A DNA stretch of 64,000 nucleotides, taken from assembly GCF_000145215.1 (NCBI RefSeq), contig NC_014392.1, positions 861,501-925,500 on the forward strand. The letters are read 5' to 3'. Each line of letters starts with the position of its first letter. Position 1 is the stretch's first letter. The position numbers were made by a program, and so were the translations under genes. This DNA is from Caldicellulosiruptor obsidiansis OB47. GTDB lineage: Bacteria; Bacillota; Thermoanaerobacteria; Caldicellulosiruptorales; Caldicellulosiruptoraceae. The notes below the pieces were generated by a model. It ran no database searches. It had not been told where the DNA came from and worked only from the letters and a program-made list of their open reading frames with translations. This document shows positions 13,976-30,446 of this stretch, in pieces.

Positions 13976-14124
13976 AACTGAGAAGAGAAAATAGTATTTT
14001 TCACAATAGAATTTGAAAGAAAAATTAAAAATTGTTAGAGAAAGTGACGTTGGTGAAAAATTATTTACCAAAATAGTTTTTGCCATATTTTTTATATATG
14101 TTTAAGGTGATGATTAGAGAAGAA

Positions 14125-14163
14125 GGGGAGAGAGGTGTAATATAAATCCAAAAGTCTCTCCCC
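14125..14163. terminator. Bidirectional terminator, copy 1
   Basis: GGGGAGAGA (14125-14133) pairs with TCTCTCCCC (14155-14163) across a loop of 21 nt. It lies between the convergent beta-protein and FAH-family genes and could serve both. The flanking T/A runs are short. The 218-nt gap shows nothing else. Confidence 0.65.
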
Positions 14164-14193
14164 CTATTATTTACTCAATATAAAAATTCCATA

Positions 14194-14943
14194 TTAAATA
14201 ACATAATTAACAAGCTTTCCAATTCCTTCGATTTCAACTTCAACAATATCTCCTTTTTTCATGCTTCCAATTCCAGAAGGAGTTCCTGTTATTATCACAT
14301 CAAAAGGTTTTAAGGTCATTATAGAGCTTACATAACTTACAAGCTCCTGCACGGTGAAGATGAAATTGCTTGTGTTAGAATTTTGAACAAGTTTGCCATT
14401 AAGATAGGTTTTGATTGGGCTGTTGTTTGGGTCAATTTCATCTGTTATAATAGGACCAAGTGGTAGAAAAGTGTCAAAAGATTTTGCTACAGTCCACTGA
14501 CCATTTTTAGGCTGAAGATCCCTTGCTGTCACATCATTTGCGCATGTATAACCAAGTATGTACTCATCTGCCTCTTGGGGTTTGACATTGCGACACTCTT
14601 TTTTTATAACCACCGCAAGCTCTCCTTCATAGTCCACTTGGCTACTCATATGCTGCGGATAAATTATACTGTCGTTGTGGCCAATCACACATGTCGGGGG
14701 TTTTAGGAATAGCACAGGACTTTCTGGAAGTTCAAGTCCAAGTTCTTTCGCATGGTCTTTGTAGTTAAGACCTACACAGACAATCTTTGAAGGCTTGACA
14801 GGCGGCAAAATTTTTAAATCCTCTATTGAATAAGACTCTTTACCCACTTTCAATGGTTCGAGACTTTTTACAACTTTTACAATACTGTCTTCCACAAGTC
14901 CAAAAAATGTTTTATTTGCATAAAAAAATCTTCCGACTTTCAT
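14194..14943 (-). CDS. Fumarylacetoacetate hydrolase family protein, copy 1
   Basis: A 249-aa FAH-superfamily protein, which groups metal-dependent hydrolases, decarboxylases and isomerases of beta-keto acid type compounds; the substrate is not known. The fold signature is clear: KIVCVGLNYKDHAKE, PVLFLKPPTCVIGHND, VDYEGELAVVIKKE with metal-binding Glu residues, GYTCANDVTARDLQ, and VIITGTPSGIG near the end. The gene points against the rest of the unit and was duplicated with it. The copies differ by two residues (Arg/His, Ile/Val). Confidence 0.93.
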   Translation of the reverse strand: MKVGRFFYANKTFFGLVEDSIVKVVKSLEPLKVGKESYSIEDLKILPPVKPSKIVCVGLNYKDHAKELGLELPESPVLFLKPPTCVIGHNDSIIYPQHMSSQVDYEGELAVVIKKECRNVKPQEADEYILGYTCANDVTARDLQPKNGQWTVAKSFDTFLPLGPIITDEIDPNNSPIKTYLNGKLVQNSNTSNFIFTVQELVSYVSSIMTLKPFDVIITGTPSGIGSMKKGDIVEVEIEGIGKLVNYVI

Positions 14944-15039
14944 GTGTCTTTAGCACCTCTCAATAATGTAAAATATAACTTAGTTAAGATTATATAATAT
15001 CGTGCCTAAAAACACAAATAATAAATTGCAAGTAGCCTC

Positions 15040-15068
15040 TTGTAAACTTTCATTTTGGATGATATAAT
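15040..15068 (+). promoter_or_regulatory. Promoter at the end of unit copy 1
   Basis: TTGTAA (15040-15045) and TATAAT (15063-15068) with a 17-nt spacer and an extended TG before the -10. It is identical to the promoter at 20188-20216, which precedes the AOR operon. Here the duplication places it about 110 nt upstream of copy 2 of the 121-aa gene. Confidence 0.72.
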
Positions 15069-15179
15069 AAGATTGTTAAATTTTAAACGAAATTTGGATT
15101 TTGGGTGATTAAGGAACTGATATTTTGGGTATTAATTAAAAATGGAAAAAGACATAATATGAATTATGGGAGGTAAGAA

Positions 15180-19123: not shown

Positions 19124-19272
19124 AACTGAGAAGAGAAAATAGTATTTTTCACAATAGAATTTGAAAGAAAAATTAAAAATTGTTAGAGAAAGTGACGTTG
19201 GTGAAAAATTATTTACCAAAATAGTTTTTGCCATATTTTTTATATATGTTTAAGGTGATGATTAGAGAAGAA

Positions 19273-19311
19273 GGGGAGAGAGGTGTAATATAAATCCAAA
19301 AGTCTCTCCCC
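19273..19311. terminator. Bidirectional terminator, copy 2
   Basis: GGGGAGAGA (19273-19281) and TCTCTCCCC (19303-19311) form the same stem as in copy 1 between convergent genes. Confidence 0.65.
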
Positions 19312-19341
19312 CTATTATTTACTCAATATAAAAATTCCATA

Positions 19342-20091
19342 TTAAATAACATAATTAACAAGCTTTCCAATTCCTTCGATTTCAACTTCAACAACATCTC
19401 CTTTTTTCATGCTTCCAATTCCAGAAGGAGTTCCTGTTATTATCACGTCAAAAGGTTTTAAGGTCATTATAGAGCTTACATAACTTACAAGCTCCTGCAC
19501 AGTGAAGATGAAATTGCTTGTGTTAGAATTTTGAACAAGTTTGCCATTAAGATAGGTTTTAATTGGGCTGTTGTTTGGGTCAATTTCATCTGTTATAATA
19601 GGACCAAGTGGTAGAAAAGTGTCAAAAGATTTTGCTACAGTCCACTGACCATTTTTAGGCTGAAGATCCCTTGCTGTCACATCATTTGCGCATGTATAAC
19701 CAAGTATGTACTCATCTGCCTCTTGAGGTTTTACATTGTGACACTCTTTTTTTATAACCACCGCAAGCTCTCCTTCATAGTCCACTTGGCTACTCATATG
19801 CTGCGGATAAATTATACTGTCGTTGTGGCCAATCACACATGTCGGGGGTTTTAGGAATAGCACAGGACTTTCTGGAAGTTCAAGTCCAAGTTCTTTCGCA
19901 TGATCTTTGTAGTTAAGACCTACACAGACAATCTTTGAAGGCTTGACAGGCGGCAAAATTTTTAAATCCTCTATTGAATAAGACTCTTTACCCACTTTCA
20001 ATGGTTCGAGACTTTTTACAACTTTTACAATACTGTCTTCCACAAGTCCAAAAAATGTTTTATTTGCATAAAAAAATCTTCCGACTTTCAT
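19342..20091 (-). CDS. Fumarylacetoacetate hydrolase family protein, copy 2
   Basis: A 249-aa FAH-superfamily protein with the same motifs as copy 1 (GLNYKDHAKE, VDYEGELAVV, GTPSGIG) and two residue changes. It is divergent from the AOR-associated Fe-S gene. The 266-nt gap between them carries the AOR promoter and the right edge of the duplication. Confidence 0.93.
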   Translation of the reverse strand: MKVGRFFYANKTFFGLVEDSIVKVVKSLEPLKVGKESYSIEDLKILPPVKPSKIVCVGLNYKDHAKELGLELPESPVLFLKPPTCVIGHNDSIIYPQHMSSQVDYEGELAVVIKKECHNVKPQEADEYILGYTCANDVTARDLQPKNGQWTVAKSFDTFLPLGPIITDEIDPNNSPIKTYLNGKLVQNSNTSNFIFTVQELVSYVSSIMTLKPFDVIITGTPSGIGSMKKGDVVEVEIEGIGKLVNYVI

Positions 20092-20187
20092 GTGTCTTTA
20101 GCACCTCTCAATAATGTAAAATATAACTTAGTTAAGATTATATAATATCGTGCCTAAAAACACAAATAATAAATTGCAAGTAGCCTC

Positions 20188-20216
20188 TTGTAAACTTTCA
20201 TTTTGGATGATATAAT
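20188..20216 (+). promoter_or_regulatory. Promoter of the AOR operon
   Basis: TTGTAA (20188-20193), 17-nt spacer, TATAAT (20211-20216) with an extended TG. It lies about 140 nt upstream of the Fe-S gene and inside the duplicated unit. The rest of the gap is AT-rich, and I see no other feature there except the duplication end at 20288. Confidence 0.7.
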
Positions 20217-20357
20217 AAGATTGTTAAATTTTAAACGAAATTTGGATTTTGGGTGATTAAGGAACTGATATTTTGGGTATTAATTAAATTAGTATTTTTA
20301 TTAGAGGATAATAATTTTAGAAAGTTTTAAAATATGATTTTACAGGTGGTGATTTAA

Positions 20358-20768
20358 TTGCCAAAGGTTCTTCGAGCTGATAATATGAACAAATGTCTTG
20401 GATGCTTTACATGCATGCTCACATGTGCAGCAGTGAACCATAACAATCACAACCTTGCAAAAAGCTCAATAAAAGTTAAGACAAGAGGAGGACTTCAGAG
20501 TAAGTTTGCAGCAACAGTTTGTGTTGCGTGCAAAGAACCAGCGTGTGCAGAGGCTTGTCCCACAAATGCGCTTGTTAAAAGGCCCGGTGGCGGTGTTAAG
20601 CTAATTGAAGAAAAATGCATTGCATGCGAAAAATGTGTTAGCGCATGCATAGTTGGTTCAATTCACATGGACTATGATAGAAAAATCCCAATTGTTTGCA
20701 AACACTGTGGGGCATGTGTGAGAATGTGCCCACACAATTGTCTTTCAATGGAAGAGGTGAGTGAGTAA
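20358..20768 (+). CDS. AOR-associated 4Fe-4S ferredoxin-type protein
   Basis: A 136-aa iron-sulfur protein with four Cys clusters: CLGCFTCMLTC, CVACKEPACAEAC, CIACEKCVSAC and CKHCGACVRMC. That is enough for up to four [4Fe-4S] centres, in the style of HycB/AOR-coupled electron carriers. It probably passes electrons between the adjacent aldehyde oxidoreductase and ferredoxin. The TTG start at 20358 follows AGGTGGTGAT. Its stop is two bases before the AOR ATG, indicating coupled translation. Confidence 0.93.
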   Translation: MPKVLRADNMNKCLGCFTCMLTCAAVNHNNHNLAKSSIKVKTRGGLQSKFAATVCVACKEPACAEACPTNALVKRPGGGVKLIEEKCIACEKCVSACIVGSIHMDYDRKIPIVCKHCGACVRMCPHNCLSMEEVSE

Positions 20769-20769
20769 G

Positions 20770-22530
20770 ATGATAGGCAAGGACTTTATAAGAGTGCTTT
20801 ATATTGACCTTACAAACAAAAAAGCAGATATTCAAGAAAGGGAGGATCTTTACAAATACTTAGGCGGAGCAGGTGTTGCAGCAAAACTTTTAGAGGAAAA
20901 TATGAAAAAAGGTGTTGACCCTTTGCATGAAAGCCAGCCTCTCATTATATCTATAGGACCTCTTTCAACTATCTTTCCTGTTGTGACAAAAGCTGTTGCT
21001 ACTTTTGTCTCACCCCATACAGGAGAATACGGGGAAAGTCATGCAGGTGGCAGACTTGCAATGGCTATAAGAAATGCAGGGTATGATGCAATAGTTATAA
21101 CAGGAAAAGCTCAAAAGCCCACATACCTTGTCATTACAGATAAGAATATTGAATTTAAAGATGCAAGAGCTATGTGGGGACTTGACATAGAGGAGACAGG
21201 AAGGGTTATAAGAGAAAGAGAGCCAGGTCCAGGGAAAAGAAGTATAATCAGAATTGGCAGGGCAGGCGAAAACCTTGTAACATACTCTTGTGTCAACGTT
21301 GATACTTACAGACATTTTGGAAGGCTTGGCATAGGAGCAGTCTTTGGAAGCAAAAACCTCAAAGCGATGATGATAATGGGCGAAGAGGATTTGCCTATTT
21401 CGAATTTAAAAGAGTACTTTAAGACTTATCAGGAGATATACAAAAAAGTTACACAGACAGATGCAATGGCGAAGTATCATGAGCTTGGGACACCTATGAA
21501 CATCAAAGTGCTAAACAGCATAAGTTCTCTTCCAACTAAGAATTTACTTCAGTCTACATTTGAGCATGCGGACGATATCTCAGGTGAGACGTTTGCCGAA
21601 AAGAACCTGGTCAGAAAGGTTTCGTGTGTTGGCTGTCCCATTGGATGCATCCATATAGGGCAGTTCAGACGCGAGTTTGACAAGGGATATGAGTATGAGT
21701 CTATTGCTGTATCGTATGACCATGAACTTATATATGCTTTAGGTAGTCTTTTAGGAATAAAAACAACTGATGAGGTCCTTCAGATTATTGATGAGGTAGA
21801 ACTTGCAGGACTTGATGCTATCTCAACAGGTGTTGTATTGGCATGGGCAACAGAAGCACTCAAAAAAGGTCTTATCTCAAGAGAAGACACTCTTGCTGAC
21901 CTTGAGTTTGGCAACACCATGGAGTATGTAAAAGCAATTGACAATATTGCAGACAGGGTAAACGAGTTTTACTACACAATTGGCAAAGGTCTCAAAGAGG
22001 CTGTGAAAAAATATGGAGGAGAAGAGTTTGCACTTTTGTATGGTGGCAATGAGATGGCAGGATATCATACAGGCTATGCATTTGCGCTTGGTCAAACAGT
22101 TGGTGCAAGGCATTCTCACTTAGACAATGCAGGTTACTCTTATGACCAGAGCGCAAAAGAATTAAAAGATGAGGAAATAATAGATTATGTGATTAATGAA
22201 GAGAAGGAAAGAGCAGTGCTCACATCGCTGTGCATATGTCTATTTGCACGAAAGGTGTATGACAGGTCAACTATCTTGAAAGCATTAAATGCGGTTGGTA
22301 TAAACTGGACTAATGATGACCTTACACGACTTGCAAATGACGTATTTTTTACTAAACTAAAAATCAAAAAGGAGCTTGGATATTCACTTGAAAATTATAA
22401 ATTTCCGAAGAGAATATTTGAAACACCTACAATGTGGGGAAAGATGGATGAAGAGAGGTTAAATAGGCTTTTGAAGATGTATATCGAGAGGGTGGAAAAA
22501 GAATATGAAGATTGGAGTAGAGGTAAATAG
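20770..22530 (+). CDS. aor: Aldehyde:ferredoxin oxidoreductase, tungsten-type
   Basis: The 586-aa protein belongs to the AOR family: tungstopterin enzymes that oxidise aldehydes to acids, or the reverse, with ferredoxin. The N-terminal pattern IRVLYIDLTNKK and LGGAGVAAKLL is typical. The first cluster cysteines are C286, C289 and C293 (CVGCPIGC), and the fourth is probably in LTSLCICLFARK near residue 490. The HLDNAGYSYDQ segment corresponds to the pterin-binding DxxGxC-like motif. I choose ATG 20770 over GTG 20761 because GAGGTGAG lies just upstream. The MoaD-like gene overlaps its end by 26 nt. Confidence 0.95.
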   Translation: MIGKDFIRVLYIDLTNKKADIQEREDLYKYLGGAGVAAKLLEENMKKGVDPLHESQPLIISIGPLSTIFPVVTKAVATFVSPHTGEYGESHAGGRLAMAIRNAGYDAIVITGKAQKPTYLVITDKNIEFKDARAMWGLDIEETGRVIREREPGPGKRSIIRIGRAGENLVTYSCVNVDTYRHFGRLGIGAVFGSKNLKAMMIMGEEDLPISNLKEYFKTYQEIYKKVTQTDAMAKYHELGTPMNIKVLNSISSLPTKNLLQSTFEHADDISGETFAEKNLVRKVSCVGCPIGCIHIGQFRREFDKGYEYESIAVSYDHELIYALGSLLGIKTTDEVLQIIDEVELAGLDAISTGVVLAWATEALKKGLISREDTLADLEFGNTMEYVKAIDNIADRVNEFYYTIGKGLKEAVKKYGGEEFALLYGGNEMAGYHTGYAFALGQTVGARHSHLDNAGYSYDQSAKELKDEEIIDYVINEEKERAVLTSLCICLFARKVYDRSTILKALNAVGINWTNDDLTRLANDVFFTKLKIKKELGYSLENYKFPKRIFETPTMWGKMDEERLNRLLKMYIERVEKEYEDWSRGK

Positions 22531-22735
22531 TTTCTTTAGCAGGTATGGCAGCAGGATAGGCAAAATGGAAATTGAGATTGACCAGAACACAAATGTAGAA
22601 AAGCTTCTTGAGAACTTAAACATTCCAAAAGACAAGGTTGGATTTGTGGTTGTTAATCAAAAAAGGGTTGACTTTAGCTATGTGTTGTCGGAAAATGATA
22701 GTGTGTATATAACTCCATATGCAACTGGAGGATAA
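22505..22735 (+). CDS. MoaD/ThiS-family sulfur carrier
   Basis: A 76-aa ubiquitin-like protein ending in TGG, the C-terminal Gly-Gly that is adenylated and thiocarboxylated. It would donate sulfur for the dithiolene of molybdopterin/tungstopterin. The start lies inside the AOR gene (26-nt overlap) and the E1-like gene starts three bases after its stop. That placement supports a cofactor role rather than thiamine synthesis. Confidence 0.88.
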   Translation: MKIGVEVNSFFSRYGSRIGKMEIEIDQNTNVEKLLENLNIPKDKVGFVVVNQKRVDFSYVLSENDSVYITPYATGG

Positions 22736-22738
22736 TAT

Positions 22739-23425
22739 ATGGCTATACAAGGAAGATATATAAAAAACATAGGTGCTTTGAGTATAGATGCTCAAAAAAA
22801 ACTTTTTTCAACAACAGTTGCGGTTGTTGGAGTAGGCGGAATAGGTGGTTTTTTAATTGAAGGTCTGGCACGACTTGGAGTAAAAAAAATTATAGCAGTT
22901 GATATGGACTCTTTTGATGAGACGAATTTAAATAGGCAGATAATTTCTAATGTAAGCAACCTTGGAAAATTCAAAGTATTTGAGGCTGAAAAAAGAGTAA
23001 AAGAAATAAATCCTGCAGTTTATTTTGAACCAATAAAGGAAAAGGCTTATTTAGAAAACCTTGATATATTTTTGATGGAAGCAAGTTATATCTTTGATGC
23101 AACTGACAATATAGAAATAAGAAAGAGTCTTTCAAAGTTTGCACAAAAGATGGACAAGGTTTTAATTCACGGAGGGTGTGCTGGCTGGTATGCCCAGATT
23201 GCCATCATTACAAAAGACACACATGGAATAGAAAAACTTTTGGGAGAGACAAATGTTGAGGGTGCTGAAAAAGACCTTGGCAACCCGATTTTTGCACCAA
23301 TGCTGACAGCAGCCTTTGAACTTTCTGAGTTTTGTAAGCTGATATCAGATCAGGGTGAGAACTTAATTGGAAAGTGTATGATTATAAATCTTCTGACAAA
23401 TGAATATAGAATTTTCGAATTTTAG
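22739..23425 (+). CDS. ThiF/MoeB-family E1-like adenylyltransferase
   Basis: A 228-aa protein that should adenylate the C-terminus of the preceding MoaD-like carrier. The Rossmann ATP site VVGVGGIGGFLIEGLARLG begins near residue 30, followed by the DxDxxxxxNLNRQ motif (DMDSFDETNLNRQ) and DATDN near residue 120. The C-terminal CxxC zinc pairs seen in many MoeB proteins are not evident, as in several short ThiF-like proteins. Its stop codon overlaps the first base of the riboswitch P1 stem, so aor to thiF-like forms one transcript and the next unit is separately gated. Confidence 0.9.
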   Translation: MAIQGRYIKNIGALSIDAQKKLFSTTVAVVGVGGIGGFLIEGLARLGVKKIIAVDMDSFDETNLNRQIISNVSNLGKFKVFEAEKRVKEINPAVYFEPIKEKAYLENLDIFLMEASYIFDATDNIEIRKSLSKFAQKMDKVLIHGGCAGWYAQIAIITKDTHGIEKLLGETNVEGAEKDLGNPIFAPMLTAAFELSEFCKLISDQGENLIGKCMIINLLTNEYRIFEF

Positions 23426-23542
23426 AATCTTTCCGAGCCATAGCAGCCTAAAAAGAGAAGTTTATTCTCTTCATGGTGCTATGGCCGATAGGGTGCAGAT
23501 TTGGGAAACCGCTGCGCCTCCCGCTTTGGAAAGGAAAGATTC
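23425..23542 (+). promoter_or_regulatory. Moco/Tuco-family riboswitch aptamer
   Basis: The sequence and helices fit the molybdenum/tungsten cofactor RNA motif. P1 is perfect (GAATCTTTCC 23425-23434 with GGAAAGATTC 23533-23542). P2 is perfect (GCCATAGCA 23437-23445 with TGCTATGGC 23477-23485). A P3-like hairpin forms from AAGAGAA and TTCTCTT (23453-23471), and P4 is GGTGCAG with CTGCGCC. The conserved strings CCGAGCCA, GGCCGATAGGGTGCAG, GGGAAACCGCTGCGCCTCCCGC are present. It precedes tungstate uptake and pterin-cofactor genes, so it probably senses Moco or its tungsten analogue. The P3 hairpin favours Moco-type, the context favours tungsten. Confidence 0.88.
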
Positions 23543-23561
23543 TTCTAAAACTTGGTTTTAG

Positions 23562-23612
23562 AAGGATACTCTTTTGCTTCAAGTTTCAAAGCGGGAGAGT
23601 ATCCTTTTTTAT
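23562..23612 (+). terminator. Riboswitch expression-platform terminator
   Basis: AAGGATACTCT (23563-23573) pairs with AGAGTATCCTT (23596-23606), followed by TTTTT. The 3' side of its loop, TTCAAAGCGGGAG (23585-23597), can instead pair with CTCCCGCTTTGGA inside the aptamer (23518-23530) with one G-U. The two states are mutually exclusive, so ligand binding should favour termination before tupA. Confidence 0.88.
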
Positions 23613-23645
23613 TTTTGAAAATACAAAAAGGCGGGAGACCAGAAA

Positions 23646-24461
23646 ATGCAAAAAGAAAAGTATCTCAGAAATTTTGCAGTACTACTTACTTTTATTTTCG
23701 TTGCTACTTTAAGCTTTCTTTCATTTTCTTACTATAAAACTTTCAAGATAGCTACAACTACAAGTATATACGATAGTGGTTTTCTGGACTTTGTAATACC
23801 TGCATTCAAAAAGAAGAACAATATGAAATTGGCATTCATTTCAGTAGGAAGCGGTCAGGCAGTCAAGATTTTCAAAAATGGCGATGCTGATGGAATAATA
23901 ATACATGAAAGGTCATTTTTAGATGAACTTGAAAAAACAAAGCTGATAAATGGTTATAGCGCATTTGTTTCGAACTATTTTATACTTGTTGGGCCAAAAG
24001 ATAAAAAGGATTTATTTAAAAAGGTAAAAAGTGTCCAAGAAGCTTTTGCACTGATAAGAAAAAATAACTTTAAATTTGTGTCACGTGCAGACAATTCAGC
24101 AACTTATATTAGAGAACTTGAGATATGGAAGTTAGCAAAGGTCCAGCCAAATTTTGGAGGATATATAAAGTCAGGGCAGGGTATGGGAATGAGTCTAAAT
24201 CTTGCAAATGAAAAGGGAGCTTTTATTCTCACCGATGAAGCAACATTTTACAAAATGAAAGATAAATTAGATAGTTTGGATGTAGTTTATCAAAATTCAA
24301 AGGAGCAAGTACTTACAAATATATATTACTTTGCTTACTCACCTAAAAAAGTACAGCTTTCCAAGTTTGCTGCATACTTGAAAAGCAAGGAATTTAAAAA
24401 TCTTGTAAGTTCTTTTAACCAAAAATTCTTCAAAAAAGAAATATACAGAGTTGTAAAATGA
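23646..24461 (+). CDS. tupA: Tungstate ABC transporter, substrate-binding protein
   Basis: A 271-aa binding protein with an N-terminal membrane/signal segment (about residues 8-30). The TupA pattern is clear: TTTSIYDSGFLDFVIPAF, SVGSGQAVKIFKNGDADGIIIHE, then FVSNYFILVGPKDK and FVSRADNSATYIRELEIWK. No lipobox Cys is seen after the signal segment, so it may stay anchored by its first helix. The ATG at 23646 uses GGGAG at 23633-23637, which is also complementary to the riboswitch CTCCC. First gene of a long cofactor unit. Confidence 0.9.
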   Translation: MQKEKYLRNFAVLLTFIFVATLSFLSFSYYKTFKIATTTSIYDSGFLDFVIPAFKKKNNMKLAFISVGSGQAVKIFKNGDADGIIIHERSFLDELEKTKLINGYSAFVSNYFILVGPKDKKDLFKKVKSVQEAFALIRKNNFKFVSRADNSATYIRELEIWKLAKVQPNFGGYIKSGQGMGMSLNLANEKGAFILTDEATFYKMKDKLDSLDVVYQNSKEQVLTNIYYFAYSPKKVQLSKFAAYLKSKEFKNLVSSFNQKFFKKEIYRVVK

Positions 24462-24480: not shown

Positions 24481-25113
24481 ATGTTGGCAAATGTAGTTCT
24501 TTCAACTTTGATTGTTTGTATTCCTTCGACATTCTTGGCGATTTTGATAGGTGTTCCTGCAGGATATTTTCTCAAAGTCAAAAGATTTAAATACAGAAAG
24601 ATGCTAATTAGAATAGTTTATACTCTATCTGGGCTACCACCCGTGCTCGCAGGACTGCTGGTATATATACTTCTTTCCAGAAAAGGTCCTCTTGGTTTTT
24701 TGGACATACTTTTTACCAAATGGGCTATGATCATTACCCAGGTAATACTCATTGTTCCTATAGTCACACTGTATACCCTGTCTGGACTAAAAAATATAGA
24801 TAGTGTTCTTGAAAACTTGGATTATTTGAATGTGAAGGGATGCAAAAGGCATACAGCCATTGTGAGGGAGTATTTAAAAGAGATAATATATGCTATTGTT
24901 TTAGGTCTTTCAAGAGCAATTTCTGAGGTTGGTGGAGTTTTGATTGTTGGGGGGAACATAGAAGGAAGCACACGGATTTTAACAACAGCCATAATTTTTG
25001 AAATTACCAAGGGTGAGTTTTCACACGCTCTTTTGCTGGGTGCGGTACTGCTTGCTATCTCATTTACTTTTAATACAATTTTGCAAATATTGCAGGGTGA
25101 TGCTTTTGATTAA
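24481..25113 (+). CDS. tupB: Tungstate ABC transporter, permease
   Basis: A 210-aa permease with about five membrane segments. The EAA-like loop reads LDYLNVKGCKRHTAIVREYLKEIIYAIVLGLSRAISEVG, where the family has EAARTLGA...G.....P. The GLSRAISEVGGVLIVGGNI ending is typical of TupB/ModB-type permeases. ATG 24481 follows AAGAGGTAACG. It overlaps tupC by 14 nt. Confidence 0.9.
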   Translation: MLANVVLSTLIVCIPSTFLAILIGVPAGYFLKVKRFKYRKMLIRIVYTLSGLPPVLAGLLVYILLSRKGPLGFLDILFTKWAMIITQVILIVPIVTLYTLSGLKNIDSVLENLDYLNVKGCKRHTAIVREYLKEIIYAIVLGLSRAISEVGGVLIVGGNIEGSTRILTTAIIFEITKGEFSHALLLGAVLLAISFTFNTILQILQGDAFD

Positions 25114-25693
25114 AGTGATAGATGTAAAAAAGAATTTTGGGCAGAGGATATTGTTTGAGTGTAAGAGTCTCACATTTGAAAAGAAAGGACTTTATATTAT
25201 AAAAGGACCAAACGGTTGCGGGAAGACCACATTTTTGAAAATGCTATTTGGAAAGGACAAAGAATATTTAGGTATAATACACAATCTGTTCAATAAAAAC
25301 ATTATGCTTCCACAGCAGCCATATTTTTTTAAAGGGTCGGTTGAATATAATCTTGCACTTGCTCTTTCGCATGAGAATCTAAAGTCTGCCCAGGAGGTTT
25401 TAAAGATGTTTGGTGTTCCTCTTAAAACCAACATAAATCAGCTCTCAGCTGGGCAGAGACAGCTAATAAGTTTCTTAAGAGCGTTTTATATACCTTCTGA
25501 TGTACTTTTTTTGGATGAGCCCGATTCCTTTCTCGACATAGATGTAAAAGAGTTTGTGTACAGACTTATAGAAGATGAAGCACAAAAAAGGTGTATAATA
25601 GTTGTAACGCACCATCAAAGTGCAGCTTTGAAGGGTAATATGATATATTTTGAAAATGGTCAGATTATTAAAGAAGGGGAGCTCTACAAATGA
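25100..25693 (+). CDS. tupC: Tungstate ABC transporter, ATP-binding protein
   Basis: A short 197-aa ABC ATPase with Walker A GPNGCGKTT near residue 36, signature LSAGQRQLI, Walker B VLFLDEPDS and the switch His in VVTHH. It lacks the regulatory C-terminal domain found in ModC. I place the start at ATG 25100 inside tupB; a TTG two codons later (25106) has better spacing to AGGG. It energises TupAB and overlaps moeA by 4 nt. Confidence 0.9.
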   Translation: MLLIKVIDVKKNFGQRILFECKSLTFEKKGLYIIKGPNGCGKTTFLKMLFGKDKEYLGIIHNLFNKNIMLPQQPYFFKGSVEYNLALALSHENLKSAQEVLKMFGVPLKTNINQLSAGQRQLISFLRAFYIPSDVLFLDEPDSFLDIDVKEFVYRLIEDEAQKRCIIVVTHHQSAALKGNMIYFENGQIIKEGELYK

Positions 25694-26904
25694 AGGTATT
25701 AAAAACATATTTTGAAGTTTTTGAGATACTTAAAGATGAGTTTTGTAATTTTAATCTTCAATCAGAAAAGGTATCTATCCAAGAAGCAGTTTTTAGAATC
25801 TGTGCTCAAGATATTATAGCAGATATAGATGTTCCTCACTTTGACAAGTCCACTGTTGATGGATATGCACTAAGATGTGAAGAGACGTTTGAAGCGAATG
25901 ATGAAAACCCGGCCGTGTTTGAAATAGTAGGCGAGGTGAAAACGGGAGAGGTACCAAACTTTCAAATACAAAAAGGACAAGCTGCAAGGATATTCACAGG
26001 AGGGTATGTACCGCAAAATGTAAATAGCATTGTGATGCTTGAAAATACCATTGAAGAGGATGGAAAACTCTATGTTTTCAAGCCAGCAAAGCCTGGCGAA
26101 AATATACTCAAAAAAGGTGAGGACATAAAAAAAGGCAGTATCGTCATAAAGAAATATCAAAAGCTTGAGCCTGCTCAAATTGGCGTGTTGGGTGCAATAG
26201 GAAAAAGGGAAGTGGAAGTGTTTAAAAAAATAAGAGTGGGTATAATCTCGACCGGAGATGAAATAATATCGCAGGATGAAAAACTTGATGGTGCAAAGAT
26301 TTATGATGTGAACTCATTCACTCTGTACACATCATGCTACAAGGAATATGCTCTGCCAAAAATGTACGGGATTGTAAAAGATAATTTTGAGGTTTTGAAA
26401 GATCTTCTTTCCACAGCTTTGCAGGAAAATGACATTGTTCTTATTTCAGGTGGAAGTTCTGTTGGCACATACGACAACACTTTAAAGGCTATTGAGAGCC
26501 TAAAAGATTCTAAGGTGCTTGTTGACGGTGTTTCAATAAAACCGGGCAAACCAACAATAATAGCAAAAGTTAACACAAAGGCAGTTTTTGGACTTCCTGG
26601 CCATCCTGTGTCTTGCCTTTTTATATTCAACTTTTTTGTAAAAAAACTTATGGACATCATATTACATCAGCAGGACACTACAAGAAAAGTTCTTGCTAAG
26701 ATGAAAACCTCTATTTCGACTTCGTCCGGCAGAACTGAGTTTGTGTTTGTAAAGCTTCATTTTGGCGATGAGATTTTAGCTGAGCCTCTTTATGGAAAAT
26801 CAGGTTCGATAAATCTTTTGAATAATGCAAGTGGATATATAAGGGTTGATGCAACAAAAACTGGTATCAGGCCGGGAGATATTGTTGAGGTGATATTGAT
26901 ATGA
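25690..26904 (+). CDS. moeA: Molybdopterin molybdenumtransferase MoeA, paralog 1
   Basis: A 404-aa MoeA, which inserts the metal into adenylylated molybdopterin. The N-terminal STVDGYALR motif, GEVKTGEVPNFQIQKGQAARIFTGG, the MoCF-type core IISTGDE and LISGGSSVGTYDNT, and KPGKPTIIAKV...GLPGHPVS are all in place. ATGA overlap with tupC shows coupling. The GGSSVGTYD loop keeps the canonical GG-S-G-D pattern, unlike the next paralog. Confidence 0.94.
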   Translation: MKVLKTYFEVFEILKDEFCNFNLQSEKVSIQEAVFRICAQDIIADIDVPHFDKSTVDGYALRCEETFEANDENPAVFEIVGEVKTGEVPNFQIQKGQAARIFTGGYVPQNVNSIVMLENTIEEDGKLYVFKPAKPGENILKKGEDIKKGSIVIKKYQKLEPAQIGVLGAIGKREVEVFKKIRVGIISTGDEIISQDEKLDGAKIYDVNSFTLYTSCYKEYALPKMYGIVKDNFEVLKDLLSTALQENDIVLISGGSSVGTYDNTLKAIESLKDSKVLVDGVSIKPGKPTIIAKVNTKAVFGLPGHPVSCLFIFNFFVKKLMDIILHQQDTTRKVLAKMKTSISTSSGRTEFVFVKLHFGDEILAEPLYGKSGSINLLNNASGYIRVDATKTGIRPGDIVEVILI

Positions 26905-28064
26905 AAGATTATCATTTTTCAGCTGTGCTTCCACAGCATGCAAGAGTTTCTATCCAGGAAATTCTAAAGAAATATCTGGTATTAGAAGAAGAGGAGATTT
27001 CATTGTATGATGCAAAAAATAGATTTGTTGCAGAGGATTACAAGGCTATTCACACATCCCCACCTACAGATGTTGCTGCAATGGATGGATATGCCGTGAT
27101 GGCTGAAGAGACATTCGACGCTTATGATACAAATCCAAAATACGTTGAAAGTTTCAAAACTGTCCAAACAGGCGAAAGTATAGATAATTTCAATGCGGTT
27201 ATTCCTTTTGAAGATGTCCAGCTGGAAAACGGAAAAATAAAAATTTTTCAAAGCTACTATCCACGTCAAAACGTTCGCTCACAGGGCGAGGATATAAAAG
27301 AAGGTGAGATGATAATAAAGAAAGGTGAGTTTTTGACATTTTTTGACAAGGTATATCTAAAAGCTGGTGGGTGGCTTAATATCAAGGTTTACAAAATGCC
27401 AAAAGTTGCTTTTCTGCCAACTGGAGATGAGCTTGTGGATAGAATTGAAAAAGCTGAACAGCTTGTTGAGTTCAATTCGGTGATTTTCAGTGAGCTTCTG
27501 TATCAGTATGGTTTTGAAATTAGTGTTTTCAAACCAGTATCCAACGATTTAAATATTCTTAAAGAAACTTTGAAAAAACTTTTAGATGAGTTTGATATTG
27601 TGTTTGTAAATGCTGGGTCATCTAAAGGTGACAAGGATTTGACACATGATGTAATTCAAAGTCTTGGCAGAGTAGCTGTCCATGGTATAGCTATAAAACC
27701 TGGAAAGCCAACAGTCATAGGTGAGGTAAATGGGAAACTTGTAATGGGACTTCCTGGTTTTCCTGTTTCTATGTTTTTTGTTCTCAAAGAGATTTTTTTA
27801 AAGGCTTTCTTTGACGCATATTTGTTAAATCCGAAAGAAAAGAGTGTTATGGCTGTACTGGAAAGAAGAGTTGGGTCAGACGTTGGAGCTGAGGAGTATA
27901 TAAGAGTACAGGTGGAAAACAAGGATGGCAAAAACCATGCAAGAGTTTTAAAAAGAGGAGCAAGCGTGATTTCAAGTTTGAAGCGGGCAGATGGATATAT
28001 AGTTGTGCCAGTAAATGTGGATGTTGTGGAAGAGGGAAGTTTGGTTGAGGTTAAGATGATTTGA
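26901..28064 (+). CDS. moeA: MoeA-family protein, paralog 2
   Basis: A 387-aa second MoeA, coupled to the first by a 4-nt overlap. It keeps AAMDGYAVM, IPFEDVQLENG, FLPTGDE and the IKPGKPTVIGEV...GLPGFPVSMFFV segment. The active-site loop is NAGSSKGDKDLTHD instead of SGGSSVGTYD, which marks a distinct MoeA subfamily. Pairs of divergent MoeA proteins are common in tungsten users, and one may be specific for W and the other for Mo. That split is inference. Confidence 0.92.
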   Translation: MKDYHFSAVLPQHARVSIQEILKKYLVLEEEEISLYDAKNRFVAEDYKAIHTSPPTDVAAMDGYAVMAEETFDAYDTNPKYVESFKTVQTGESIDNFNAVIPFEDVQLENGKIKIFQSYYPRQNVRSQGEDIKEGEMIIKKGEFLTFFDKVYLKAGGWLNIKVYKMPKVAFLPTGDELVDRIEKAEQLVEFNSVIFSELLYQYGFEISVFKPVSNDLNILKETLKKLLDEFDIVFVNAGSSKGDKDLTHDVIQSLGRVAVHGIAIKPGKPTVIGEVNGKLVMGLPGFPVSMFFVLKEIFLKAFFDAYLLNPKEKSVMAVLERRVGSDVGAEEYIRVQVENKDGKNHARVLKRGASVISSLKRADGYIVVPVNVDVVEEGSLVEVKMI

Positions 28065-28078
28065 AAAAGGTGATGAAA

Positions 28079-29005
28079 ATGTTTGATGGTTTTTCAAGAA
28101 AAATAGACTATTTAAGGTTTTCTGTAACTGATAGATGCAACTTTTTTTGCATGTATTGCCGAACAAAGGATTTGTGTTATGAAAGGGCAGACCAGCTTTC
28201 AAAAGGAGAAATATTTAGAATAATCTCTGCATTTAAAAAGCTTGGGATCCAAAAACTTCGAATTACTGGTGGAGAGCCCTTTTTGAGAGATGACATTTTT
28301 GAGATAATTGAGTTTGCACACAGTATTGGCATAGAAAATATAAATATAACAACAAATGGTTGGTTAGATACCGAAAAGATTAAAAAGGTTATTAAAAGTC
28401 CGCTCAAATCAGTAAATATTTCTCTTGATACATTAGATAAGAAAAAATACAGGTTTGTAACAGGAATTGATGGTTTAGATAAGGTTTTGACAGCGATAGA
28501 TGAGTTGAGAGATCACAAGAGAGTGAAAATAAACACTGTGCTCATTCGCTCTGTTAACCTTGATGAGATAGAAGATTTGATTTCCTTTGCGAAAAAGAGG
28601 AATATTATTATTCGTTTTATTGAACTTATGCCTATTGGCATTGCCAACCAAATCTTCAAAGATGAATTTGTAAGCAAAGATGAGGTTATCAAAAGGTTCA
28701 AAGGAATAAAAGAATTAAGTACAAAAGAGGTTTCAGCTGCTAAATATTACTATGTTGAAGATTTTGACTACACAGTAGGATTTATAAGCTCTGTATCAGA
28801 CCATTTTTGCAAAACGTGCAATAAAGTCAGAGTCTCATCAACTGGCGTGCTTTACAACTGTCTGTTTGATAAGGATGGTTTAAACTTGAGAGATTTTCTG
28901 GATGATGAAGAACTCCTGCTCAAAAAGATAGAAGATTTTGTCAAAAAGAAAAAGCTGATAAGAAGCCTAAAATCGGATATGCCGATGTTTAAGATAGGAG
29001 GGTAG
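28079..29005 (+). CDS. moaA: GTP 3',8-cyclase MoaA
   Basis: A 308-aa radical-SAM enzyme that starts molybdopterin synthesis from GTP. The N-terminal cluster is C20, C24, C27 (DRCNFFCMYC), with the SAM GGEP motif near residue 64. The second cluster cysteines are in FCKTCNKVRVSSTGVLYNCLF, and the protein ends in the required Gly-Gly (FKIGG). I choose ATG 28079 with AAAAAGG upstream over the TTG at 28061. It follows moeA paralog 2 after 14 nt. Confidence 0.95.
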   Translation: MFDGFSRKIDYLRFSVTDRCNFFCMYCRTKDLCYERADQLSKGEIFRIISAFKKLGIQKLRITGGEPFLRDDIFEIIEFAHSIGIENINITTNGWLDTEKIKKVIKSPLKSVNISLDTLDKKKYRFVTGIDGLDKVLTAIDELRDHKRVKINTVLIRSVNLDEIEDLISFAKKRNIIIRFIELMPIGIANQIFKDEFVSKDEVIKRFKGIKELSTKEVSAAKYYYVEDFDYTVGFISSVSDHFCKTCNKVRVSSTGVLYNCLFDKDGLNLRDFLDDEELLLKKIEDFVKKKKLIRSLKSDMPMFKIGG

Positions 29006-29012
29006 TGTAAAG

Positions 29013-29939
29013 ATGGAATTTACACATTTTGATAAAGATGGCCTTCCCAAGATGGTAGATGTGACGTCAAAAGAACCAAGTTTCAGGGTAGCAAAAGCAA
29101 GCGGTAAAATCTTTGTAGGAAAGGATGTTATTGAAGCAATTGAAAATAGGCTTTTACCAAAAGGGGATGTGTTTGCAACTGCTAAGGTTGCGGCGATAAA
29201 TGCTGCCAAAAAGACATCCGAACTGATACCTCTTTGCCACAACATATTTTTGTCTTTTGTTGACGTTTCGTATAGGATAAACAGAGATGAAGGGTACATT
29301 GAAGCTATATCAGAAGTAAAAACTGAGGCAAAAACAGGTGCGGAGATGGAAGCAATCACAGCAGTGGTTATTTTTTTAGAGACGGTGTATGACATGTGCA
29401 AAGCGGTAAAAAAAGATATAGTAATTACTGATGTCAGGCTTATAGAAAAGTCTGGGGGGAAATCTGGACATTATATTTTTGAAAATGAAAATAAAACTGC
29501 AAAGGTTGTGTCAATCAACATCAGCAGACAAAAAGGAACGCCGAAAGAACCAGTAAGTGAAGCGGTTTTGATTGAAAACTATGGGATTGAAGGTGATGCA
29601 CACGCTGGAACTTCTCATCGGCAGGTGAGTCTTCTTGATATATCCAGCATAAAGAAGATGGAACAGTATGGGCTCAAAGGCCTTTGTTTTGGCAAGTTTG
29701 CAGAGAACATTACAACAGAAAACTTGGACCTGCAGAAAATTTCGCTTGGAACAAAACTGAGAATAGGGAATAATGTCTTGCTTGAAATAAGCCAGATAGG
29801 AAAAAAGTGCCACGGTAGCGGCTGCGAAATTGCAAGATTGGTTGGAGTTTGTATTATGCCCAAAGAAGGTCTGTTTGCAAAAGTATTAAAAGGTGGTAAA
29901 ATTAAAGAGGGAGATATTATTGAGATTTTAAATGAGTAA
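29013..29939 (+). CDS. moaC: MoaC-MOSC fusion protein
   Basis: A 308-aa two-domain protein. Residues 1-155 are MoaC, which makes cyclic pyranopterin monophosphate after MoaA: MVDVTSKEPSFRVAKASG, KKTSELIPLCHN, EMEAITAVVIFLETVYDMCKAVKKD, all catalytic segments kept. Residues about 165-308 are a MOSC domain: GIEGDAHAGTSHRQVSLL, GKFAENITTENLDL, GKKCHGSGCEIARLVGVCIMPKEGLFAKVLKGG. MOSC proteins handle sulfur or the metal centre of mature cofactor. ATG 29033-frame readings are excluded because start 29013 has the ribosome site AGGAGGG 12 nt upstream and the reading frame opens at MEFTHF. Confidence 0.94.
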   Translation: MEFTHFDKDGLPKMVDVTSKEPSFRVAKASGKIFVGKDVIEAIENRLLPKGDVFATAKVAAINAAKKTSELIPLCHNIFLSFVDVSYRINRDEGYIEAISEVKTEAKTGAEMEAITAVVIFLETVYDMCKAVKKDIVITDVRLIEKSGGKSGHYIFENENKTAKVVSINISRQKGTPKEPVSEAVLIENYGIEGDAHAGTSHRQVSLLDISSIKKMEQYGLKGLCFGKFAENITTENLDLQKISLGTKLRIGNNVLLEISQIGKKCHGSGCEIARLVGVCIMPKEGLFAKVLKGGKIKEGDIIEILNE

Positions 29940-30446
29940 AAAGTCGGCTCCACTTCCACATTCTCTTTCATTTTCTAAAAGGATATTGAGGCCATGCTCT
30001 AAGATTGGTAAAACTGCTTCAAGGCATTCTTTTACTGCCTTTGGTGAACCTGGAAGATTTATTATTAAACTGTTTTTGTATATTCCTGACACTGCACGGG
30101 AAAGGTAGCTTTTCTTGTTTATCTTTCCCGTTTCATATCTTATAAGCTCTGAAATGCCTGGTGTTTGTTTTTCTACAATTTCAAGTGTTGCCTCGGGTGT
30201 CACATCTCTTGTATAAAATCCTGTTCCACCAGTTGTCAGTATCAGATTTGCTCCGCTTTTTTGTGCCTGAATTATGGCTTCTTTTATCATTTCCTTTTCA
30301 TCTGGTACAATCTTGTAAAATACATTTATATAACCTTGTGATGACAGTATATTGATTATTACTTTTGCGCTCAAATCTTCTCTTTCTCCTCTTGAAGCTT
30401 TGTCCGAGCATGTGATTACTGCGAATGTAAAACCCATTTGTTTCAT
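29928..30446 (-). CDS. mog: MogA/MoaB-family molybdopterin adenylyltransferase
   Basis: A 172-aa MoCF-domain protein that adenylates molybdopterin before metal insertion. Visible motifs are AVITCSDKASRGEREDLSA, LILTTGGTGFYTRDVTPEAT and NLPGSPKAVKECLEAVLPILEHGL. It is on the opposite strand, convergent with moaC-MOSC and overlapping it by 12 nt, so it is not under the upstream riboswitch. With MoeA it completes the adenylation/insertion pair. Confidence 0.94.
   Translation of the reverse strand: MKQMGFTFAVITCSDKASRGEREDLSAKVIINILSSQGYINVFYKIVPDEKEMIKEAIIQAQKSGANLILTTGGTGFYTRDVTPEATLEIVEKQTPGISELIRYETGKINKKSYLSRAVSGIYKNSLIINLPGSPKAVKECLEAVLPILEHGLNILLENERECGSGADFLLI

What the first reader, a model, noticed from the sequence alone, without database searches (positions are those of the whole stretch)
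23425..23645. Moco/Tuco riboswitch with readable antiterminator and a second match at the ribosome site
The aptamer 3' part CTCCCGCTTTGGA (23518-23530) pairs with TTCAAAGCGGGAG (23585-23597), which is needed to close the terminator loop side. Ligand binding should hold CTCCCGC in the aptamer and let the terminator form. The string GCGGGAG recurs at 23631-23637, where it is the tupA ribosome site. The same CTCCCGC could therefore also block translation, giving two layers of control from one aptamer segment. The riboswitch sits behind the thiF-like gene and governs uptake plus cofactor synthesis, not the enzyme genes upstream.
Basis: partly seen in the sequence, partly recalled or inferred. Interest (0 to 1): 0.72.

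Follow-up and report, generated by a model that had tools for sequence, protein, structure and literature searches.

The report
Tungsten-cofactor riboswitch between two gene sets
This is an ordinary member of a known RNA switch family that shuts off tungsten uptake and cofactor-making genes when the cofactor is plentiful; the proposed second control layer at the ribosome site is found only in this species and would work in the wrong direction.

Summary
Positions 23419-23552 score 70.1 bits against Rfam RF01055 (gathering score 36). The aptamer lacks the P3 stem, which published work links to tungsten cofactor (Tuco). It lies between ferredoxin-AOR-MoaD-ThiF and tupABC-moeA-moeA-moaA-moaC genes.

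The transcription layer is well supported. CTCCCGCTTTGGA (23518-23530) pairs with TTCAAAGCGGGAG (23585-23597), the loop side and upper 3' half of a 20-bp terminator. Both pairings persist in the related genomes. In 22 families of the phylum the aptamer 3' segment fits its own terminator better than swapped ones (0 of 5000 permutations as good).

The second layer is not supported. GCGGGAG at 23631-23637 is real and pairs over 10 bp, but the match is absent in every relative, including the nearest leader. Across 57 loci, aptamer:ribosome-site complementarity is no better than swapped pairs (1697/2000). The logic is also reversed: ligand keeps CTCCCGC inside the aptamer, so this pairing could hide the ribosome site only without ligand.

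Verdict: new member of a known kind.

The parts
20358..20768 (+). 4Fe-4S ferredoxin-like protein, first gene of the apparent operon
   Evidence: Pfam Fer4 models
20761..22530 (+). aldehyde:ferredoxin oxidoreductase family (AOR/WOR), the only copy in the genome
   Evidence: Pfam AFOR_N and AFOR_C; single genomic match
22505..22735 (+). MoaD/ThiS-like sulfur carrier, 76 aa ending in GG
   Evidence: ORF; TIGR01687 E 2.8e-7, below its cut-off
22739..23425 (+). ThiF/MoeB-like adenylyltransferase; its stop codon (23423-23425) lies within the 5' end of the aptamer match
   Evidence: Pfam ThiF; stop 9-11 nt upstream of the aptamer core in 13/13 genomes
23419..23552 (+). Moco/Tuco riboswitch aptamer, P3-less form; P1 = 23424-23434 with 23533-23543
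   Evidence: RF01055 70.1 bits; fold z -5.9
23518..23530 (+). antiterminator 5' arm CTCCCGCTTTGGA, part of the conserved aptamer core (P4 3' end / P5)
23560..23608 (+). intrinsic terminator, 20-bp stem with 9-nt loop, followed by a T tract from 23605
   Evidence: -25.7 kcal/mol, z -6.95; 100% paired in 13 genomes with two-sided changes at two pairs
23585..23597 (+). antiterminator 3' arm TTCAAAGCGGGAG, overlapping loop and upper 3' half of the terminator stem
   Evidence: matched-versus-swapped test
23628..23637 (+). tupA Shine-Dalgarno region AAGGCGGGAG, 10-bp complement of CTCCCGCTTT; found in this genome only
23646..24461 (+). tupA-like tungstate-binding protein
   Evidence: Pfam PBP_like_2; best and only NCBIfam hit TupA, 122.7 bits, below the cut-off of 400
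24481..25113 (+). tupB-like permease
   Evidence: NF038017 above cut-off, TupB second, below cut-off
25100..25693 (+). tupC-like ABC ATPase (start inferred)
   Evidence: Pfam ABC_tran
25690..28064 (+). two moeA-like genes (25690-26904 and 26901-28064)
   Evidence: MoeA_N, MoCF_biosynth, MoeA_C in each
28061..29939 (+). moaA (28061-29005) and moaC-MOSC fusion (29013-29939)
   Evidence: TIGR02666 and NF011069 above cut-off

Best explanation
A P3-less Moco/Tuco riboswitch working as a transcriptional OFF switch inside what looks like one operon. RNA polymerase coming from the AOR-moaD-thiF genes transcribes the aptamer just after the thiF stop codon. When cofactor (most likely Tuco) is scarce, the aptamer 3' segment CTCCCGCTTTGGA is free to pair with TTCAAAGCGGGAG; this consumes the loop side and upper 3' half of the terminator stem, and transcription continues into tupABC, moeA, moeA, moaA and moaC. 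When cofactor is bound, that segment stays in the aptamer core, the 20-bp terminator forms and only the enzyme-side genes are expressed. Shown: the aptamer, the two mutually exclusive pairings and their conservation. Inferred: ligand identity, direction of control, co-transcription.
For: RF01055 at 70.1 bits, P3 absent. 13/13 genomes of the family carry it in the same order AOR-MoaD-ThiF-switch, with tupA-tupB next in 12 of 13. The terminator pairs in all 13, with two-sided changes at two pairs. The antiterminator has no broken pair in 12 of 13, though two single-base gaps and some truncated rows are set aside, and one position goes A-U to G-U; in the thirteenth, the other genus, it pairs in a shifted register. 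Beyond the family: one locus for each of 22 families, own aptamer segment with own terminator -19.8 versus swapped -16.3 kcal/mol, 0/5000; the CTCCC-starting 13 nt alone -10.0 versus -8.45, 0/5000; 52 loci, 0/2000. The two states of the full leader are nearly equal in energy (-88.4 versus -87.5 at 37 C), as a switch needs. Regulski et al. 2008 (PMC2408646): terminators follow some Moco RNAs, the E. coli example is an OFF switch, and P3-less forms go with tungsten metabolism.
Against: No expression or binding data. Inside the family the aptamer side is invariant, so the antiterminator shows no two-sided change there. The genome also holds one molybdopterin oxidoreductase of another family, so molybdenum use is not excluded. 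NCBIfam TupA/B/C scores are below the equivalog cut-offs. In one relative (G006) an insertion with a transposase-like ORF separates the switch from tupA.
Confidence: 0.85

Rival explanations
1. Two layers from one segment, as first proposed: CTCCCGC also covers the tupA SD and adds translational control in the same direction.
For: A real 10-bp complement at the SD (-18.1 kcal/mol). In the ligand-free full leader the pairing is predicted at probability 0.39 at 37 C and 0.86 at 70 C together with the terminator hairpin.
Against: Not conserved: relatives have GGAG, AGGAG, GGGAG or GCGAGG-type SDs with -5 to -12 kcal/mol; the nearest leader (L005) has GGCGAGGAA, which keeps an SD and breaks the match. 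No matched-pair signal in 57 loci: own -7.86, swapped -8.03, 1697/2000. Direction is reversed: ligand holds CTCCCGC in the aptamer and leaves the SD free. CUCCC is part of the RF01055 consensus and will complement any GGGAG-type SD.
Confidence: 0.07
2. The aptamer is sensed as usual, but coupling to thiF translation matters: a ribosome ending at the thiF stop covers the P1 5' strand and delays aptamer folding, so the switch also reads translation of the enzyme operon.
For: The thiF stop lies 9-11 nt before the TCCGAG core in 13 of 13 genomes, including a second genus at 67% ThiF identity; in other loci of the phylum with a measurable upstream gene the distance is 33-371 nt.
Against: Tight packing is normal in this gene run (AOR/moaD overlap, moaD to thiF 3 nt), so compaction alone could explain it. 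No data on coupling.
Confidence: 0.12
3. The switch senses Moco, or both cofactors, rather than Tuco specifically.
For: A second pterin-enzyme family is encoded (PF00384); the correlation of P3 with ligand is genomic, not biochemical.
Against: P3 absent, tup transporter downstream and AOR upstream, matching the published Tuco group.
Confidence: 0.25

Closest known systems
RF01055, Moco/Tuco RNA motif (Regulski et al. 2008, PMC2408646), P3-lacking group
   Same: Aptamer score and layout, missing P3, tup/moe/moa genes downstream, terminator platform.
   Different: Nothing in the aptamer. In this bacterial family it sits between the enzyme genes and the uptake/synthesis genes, starting at a stop codon.
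E. coli moaA Moco riboswitch (translational OFF switch)
   Same: Same aptamer class and the same expected direction of control.
   Different: E. coli has P3 and places the ribosome site within P1; here control is by a terminator and the SD lies outside the aptamer.
Other Bacillota Moco/Tuco RNAs with antiterminators (e.g. L031, L036, L039, L085, L125)
   Same: The segment from CTCCC to GGAAAGG pairs into the terminator loop or arm.
   Different: In others, such as L041, L047, L060 and L097, the pairing relies mainly on the TTGGAAAGGAG / P1 3' strand.

Membership tests
RF01055 Moco/Tuco riboswitch aptamer | Covariance-model score above the curated gathering score | tested here: met
   70.1 bits versus 36, full length 1-135
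RF01055 Moco/Tuco riboswitch aptamer | GAAA tetraloop on P4 and conserved core CCGAGCC / AGGG / CCUCCCG / GGAAAGG | tested here: met
   GGGAAACC loop and all core strings present in the alignment
Tuco (P3-less) subgroup | P3 stem absent | tested here: met
   P3 columns deleted in the cmscan alignment
Tuco (P3-less) subgroup | Association with tungsten genes (tup, AOR) | tested here: met
   AFOR domains upstream; TupA/B-like proteins downstream, NCBIfam scores below cut-off
Tuco (P3-less) subgroup | Selective response to Tuco over Moco | not testable with these tools
   needs reporter or binding assays
Transcription-terminating riboswitch | Mutually exclusive terminator and antiterminator, both conserved | tested here: met
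Transcription-terminating riboswitch | Ligand-dependent termination | not testable with these tools
   no expression data
Dual transcription/translation riboswitch | Conserved SD sequestration by an aptamer segment | tested here: not met
   SD match private to this genome; no matched-pair signal

The most novel reading that the evidence does not exclude
In this family the riboswitch reads two things at once: cofactor level through the aptamer, and translation of the enzyme operon through the ribosome ending at the thiF stop codon on the P1 5' strand. In this one species the read-through mRNA also folds back on the tupA SD when ligand is absent, damping the ON state.
Probability: 0.08. Interest if true: 0.5.

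Novelty: new member of a known kind. Interest (0 to 1): 0.25.

Why it matters
It gives a clear, testable terminator/antiterminator model for a P3-less (tungsten-type) riboswitch in a thermophile, and shows by a matched-versus-swapped test that Moco/Tuco RNAs across many Bacillota families re-use their conserved CUCCC...GGAAAGG segment as the antiterminator arm. The position inside the gene run suggests how a cell keeps making the tungsten enzyme while shutting off uptake and cofactor synthesis. It also warns that the invariant CUCCC of this aptamer will look like an anti-SD wherever a GGGAG-type ribosome site follows.

Tried and rejected
Second control layer at the SD: rejected on conservation, the survey and the direction of control. 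Enrichment of GCGGGAG ribosome sites in the genome: none. A conserved internal promoter in the thiF 3' end: the weak match at 23355-23382 is not kept in relatives. Covariation of the antiterminator inside the family: uninformative because the aptamer arm is invariant. Naming the organism through a ThiF search of genome contigs: no confirmed match. The paper library gave no description of this locus and no antiterminator model for Moco RNAs; many subscription papers are not held.

Full report
Observation. Every string and coordinate in the finding is correct. Rfam identifies 23419-23552 (+) as RF01055, the Moco/Tuco riboswitch aptamer, at 70.1 bits against a gathering score of 36, full length, with the P3 hairpin missing. 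It is the only copy in the genome. Regulski et al. 2008 (PMC2408646) found that P3-less forms go with tungsten-cofactor metabolism; that is a genomic correlation, not a binding result.

Surroundings. Upstream on the same strand are a ferredoxin-like gene, an AOR-family gene, a MoaD-like gene ending in GG and a ThiF/MoeB-like gene; downstream are tupA-, tupB- and tupC-like genes, two moeA genes, moaA and a moaC-MOSC fusion. The NCBIfam TupA/B/C scores are below the equivalog cut-offs, so the tungstate assignment rests on best hit and context. AOR is single-copy in the genome; one other molybdopterin oxidoreductase exists elsewhere, so the ligand could be Moco or both.

Expression platform. The terminator is a 20-bp stem, 23560-23608, -25.7 kcal/mol, z -6.95, followed by a T tract. 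Its loop side and upper 3' half contain TTCAAAGCGGGAG, the complement of aptamer segment CTCCCGCTTTGGA, so the two helices exclude each other. As transcription proceeds, the antiterminator is the predicted optimum at 23597-23600, and from 23605 the aptamer-plus-terminator form becomes slightly better. This near balance suits a switch.

Conservation. All 13 genomes of the bacterial family (two genera) have the aptamer. The 11-pair outer terminator stem forms in all 13, with two-sided changes at two pairs. In 12 of them no antiterminator pair is broken where letters are present (some rows were cut short and two single-base gaps are set aside), with one A-U to G-U change; the aptamer arm is invariant, so there is no two-sided change. 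The other genus pairs in a shifted register. To test the idea without relying on covariation, I took loci from 398 genomes of the phylum, 219 of which carry RF01055, and fetched further regions. A simple pattern found 77 aptamers, 68 followed by a hairpin with a T tract. Aptamer 3' segments pair better with their own terminators than with swapped ones: 52 loci, -19.0 versus -15.6 kcal/mol, 0/2000; one locus per family for 22 families, -19.8 versus -16.3, 0/5000; the CTCCC-starting 13 nt alone, 0/5000. So this arm is commonly re-used as antiterminator in the class. Limits: the hairpin finder is crude, and families are not fully independent.

Second layer. GCGGGAG at 23631-23637 is the SD of tupA and extends to a 10-bp complement, -18.1 kcal/mol. 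In the ligand-free full leader it is predicted with probability 0.39 at 37 C and 0.86 at 70 C, alongside the terminator hairpin. But relatives do not keep it: the nearest leader, L005, reads GGCGAGGAA (-11.6), and the others give about -5 to -10; G006, where an insertion carrying a transposase-like ORF separates switch and tupA, has GCGAGGGG. Across 57 loci own SD pairing (-7.86) is no better than swapped (-8.03), 1697/2000. The window holds another SD with equal energy. Finally the direction is wrong: ligand keeps CTCCCGC in the aptamer, which frees the SD. The match is best read as a purine-rich SD meeting the invariant CUCCC of the aptamer.

The thiF stop lies 9-11 nt before the TCCGAG core in all 13 genomes, so the P1 5' strand begins on or just after the stop. 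In the other loci of the phylum for which an upstream gene could be measured the distance is 33-371 nt. No conserved promoter is visible in the thiF 3' end. The simplest reading is a switch embedded in an operon: enzyme genes are always made, uptake and synthesis genes only on read-through. Whether a ribosome ending at the stop affects P1 is open.

Verdict. A new, well-supported member of a known riboswitch class with a standard antiterminator; the dual-control claim is not supported. Ligand identity, direction and co-transcription are inferred, not shown.

Noticed in passing
window 22739-23434: The thiF stop codon falls in the first bases of the aptamer in all 13 family genomes (9-11 nt before TCCGAG); a ribosome ending there would cover the P1 5' strand.
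   Followed up: partly
window 14001-15140 and 19149-20288: Two 1,140-bp stretches 99.3% identical, each holding a minus-strand 249-aa gene (FAH-family-like by my own reading of the sequence), the second lying directly upstream of the ferredoxin-AOR genes.
   Followed up: partly
L007 (genome G006) 3-1163, between riboswitch and tupA: In one relative an insertion with a transposase-like ORF on the opposite strand separates the intact riboswitch from tupA by about 1.9 kb.
   Followed up: partly
L054: A Moco/Tuco aptamer directly upstream of an AOR-like gene with no terminator found and an SD GGGAGGT complementary to aptamer ACCTCCC; could be a candidate ON switch, or chance.
   Followed up: no
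window 23541-23566: A further hairpin TTCTAAAACTTGGTTTTAGAA between aptamer and terminator, missing in four of the family genomes; TTCTAAAA can also extend P1.
   Followed up: no
window 29928-30446 (-): A mog/moaB-like gene on the opposite strand whose 3' end overlaps the end of moaC-MOSC by 12 bases.
   Followed up: no
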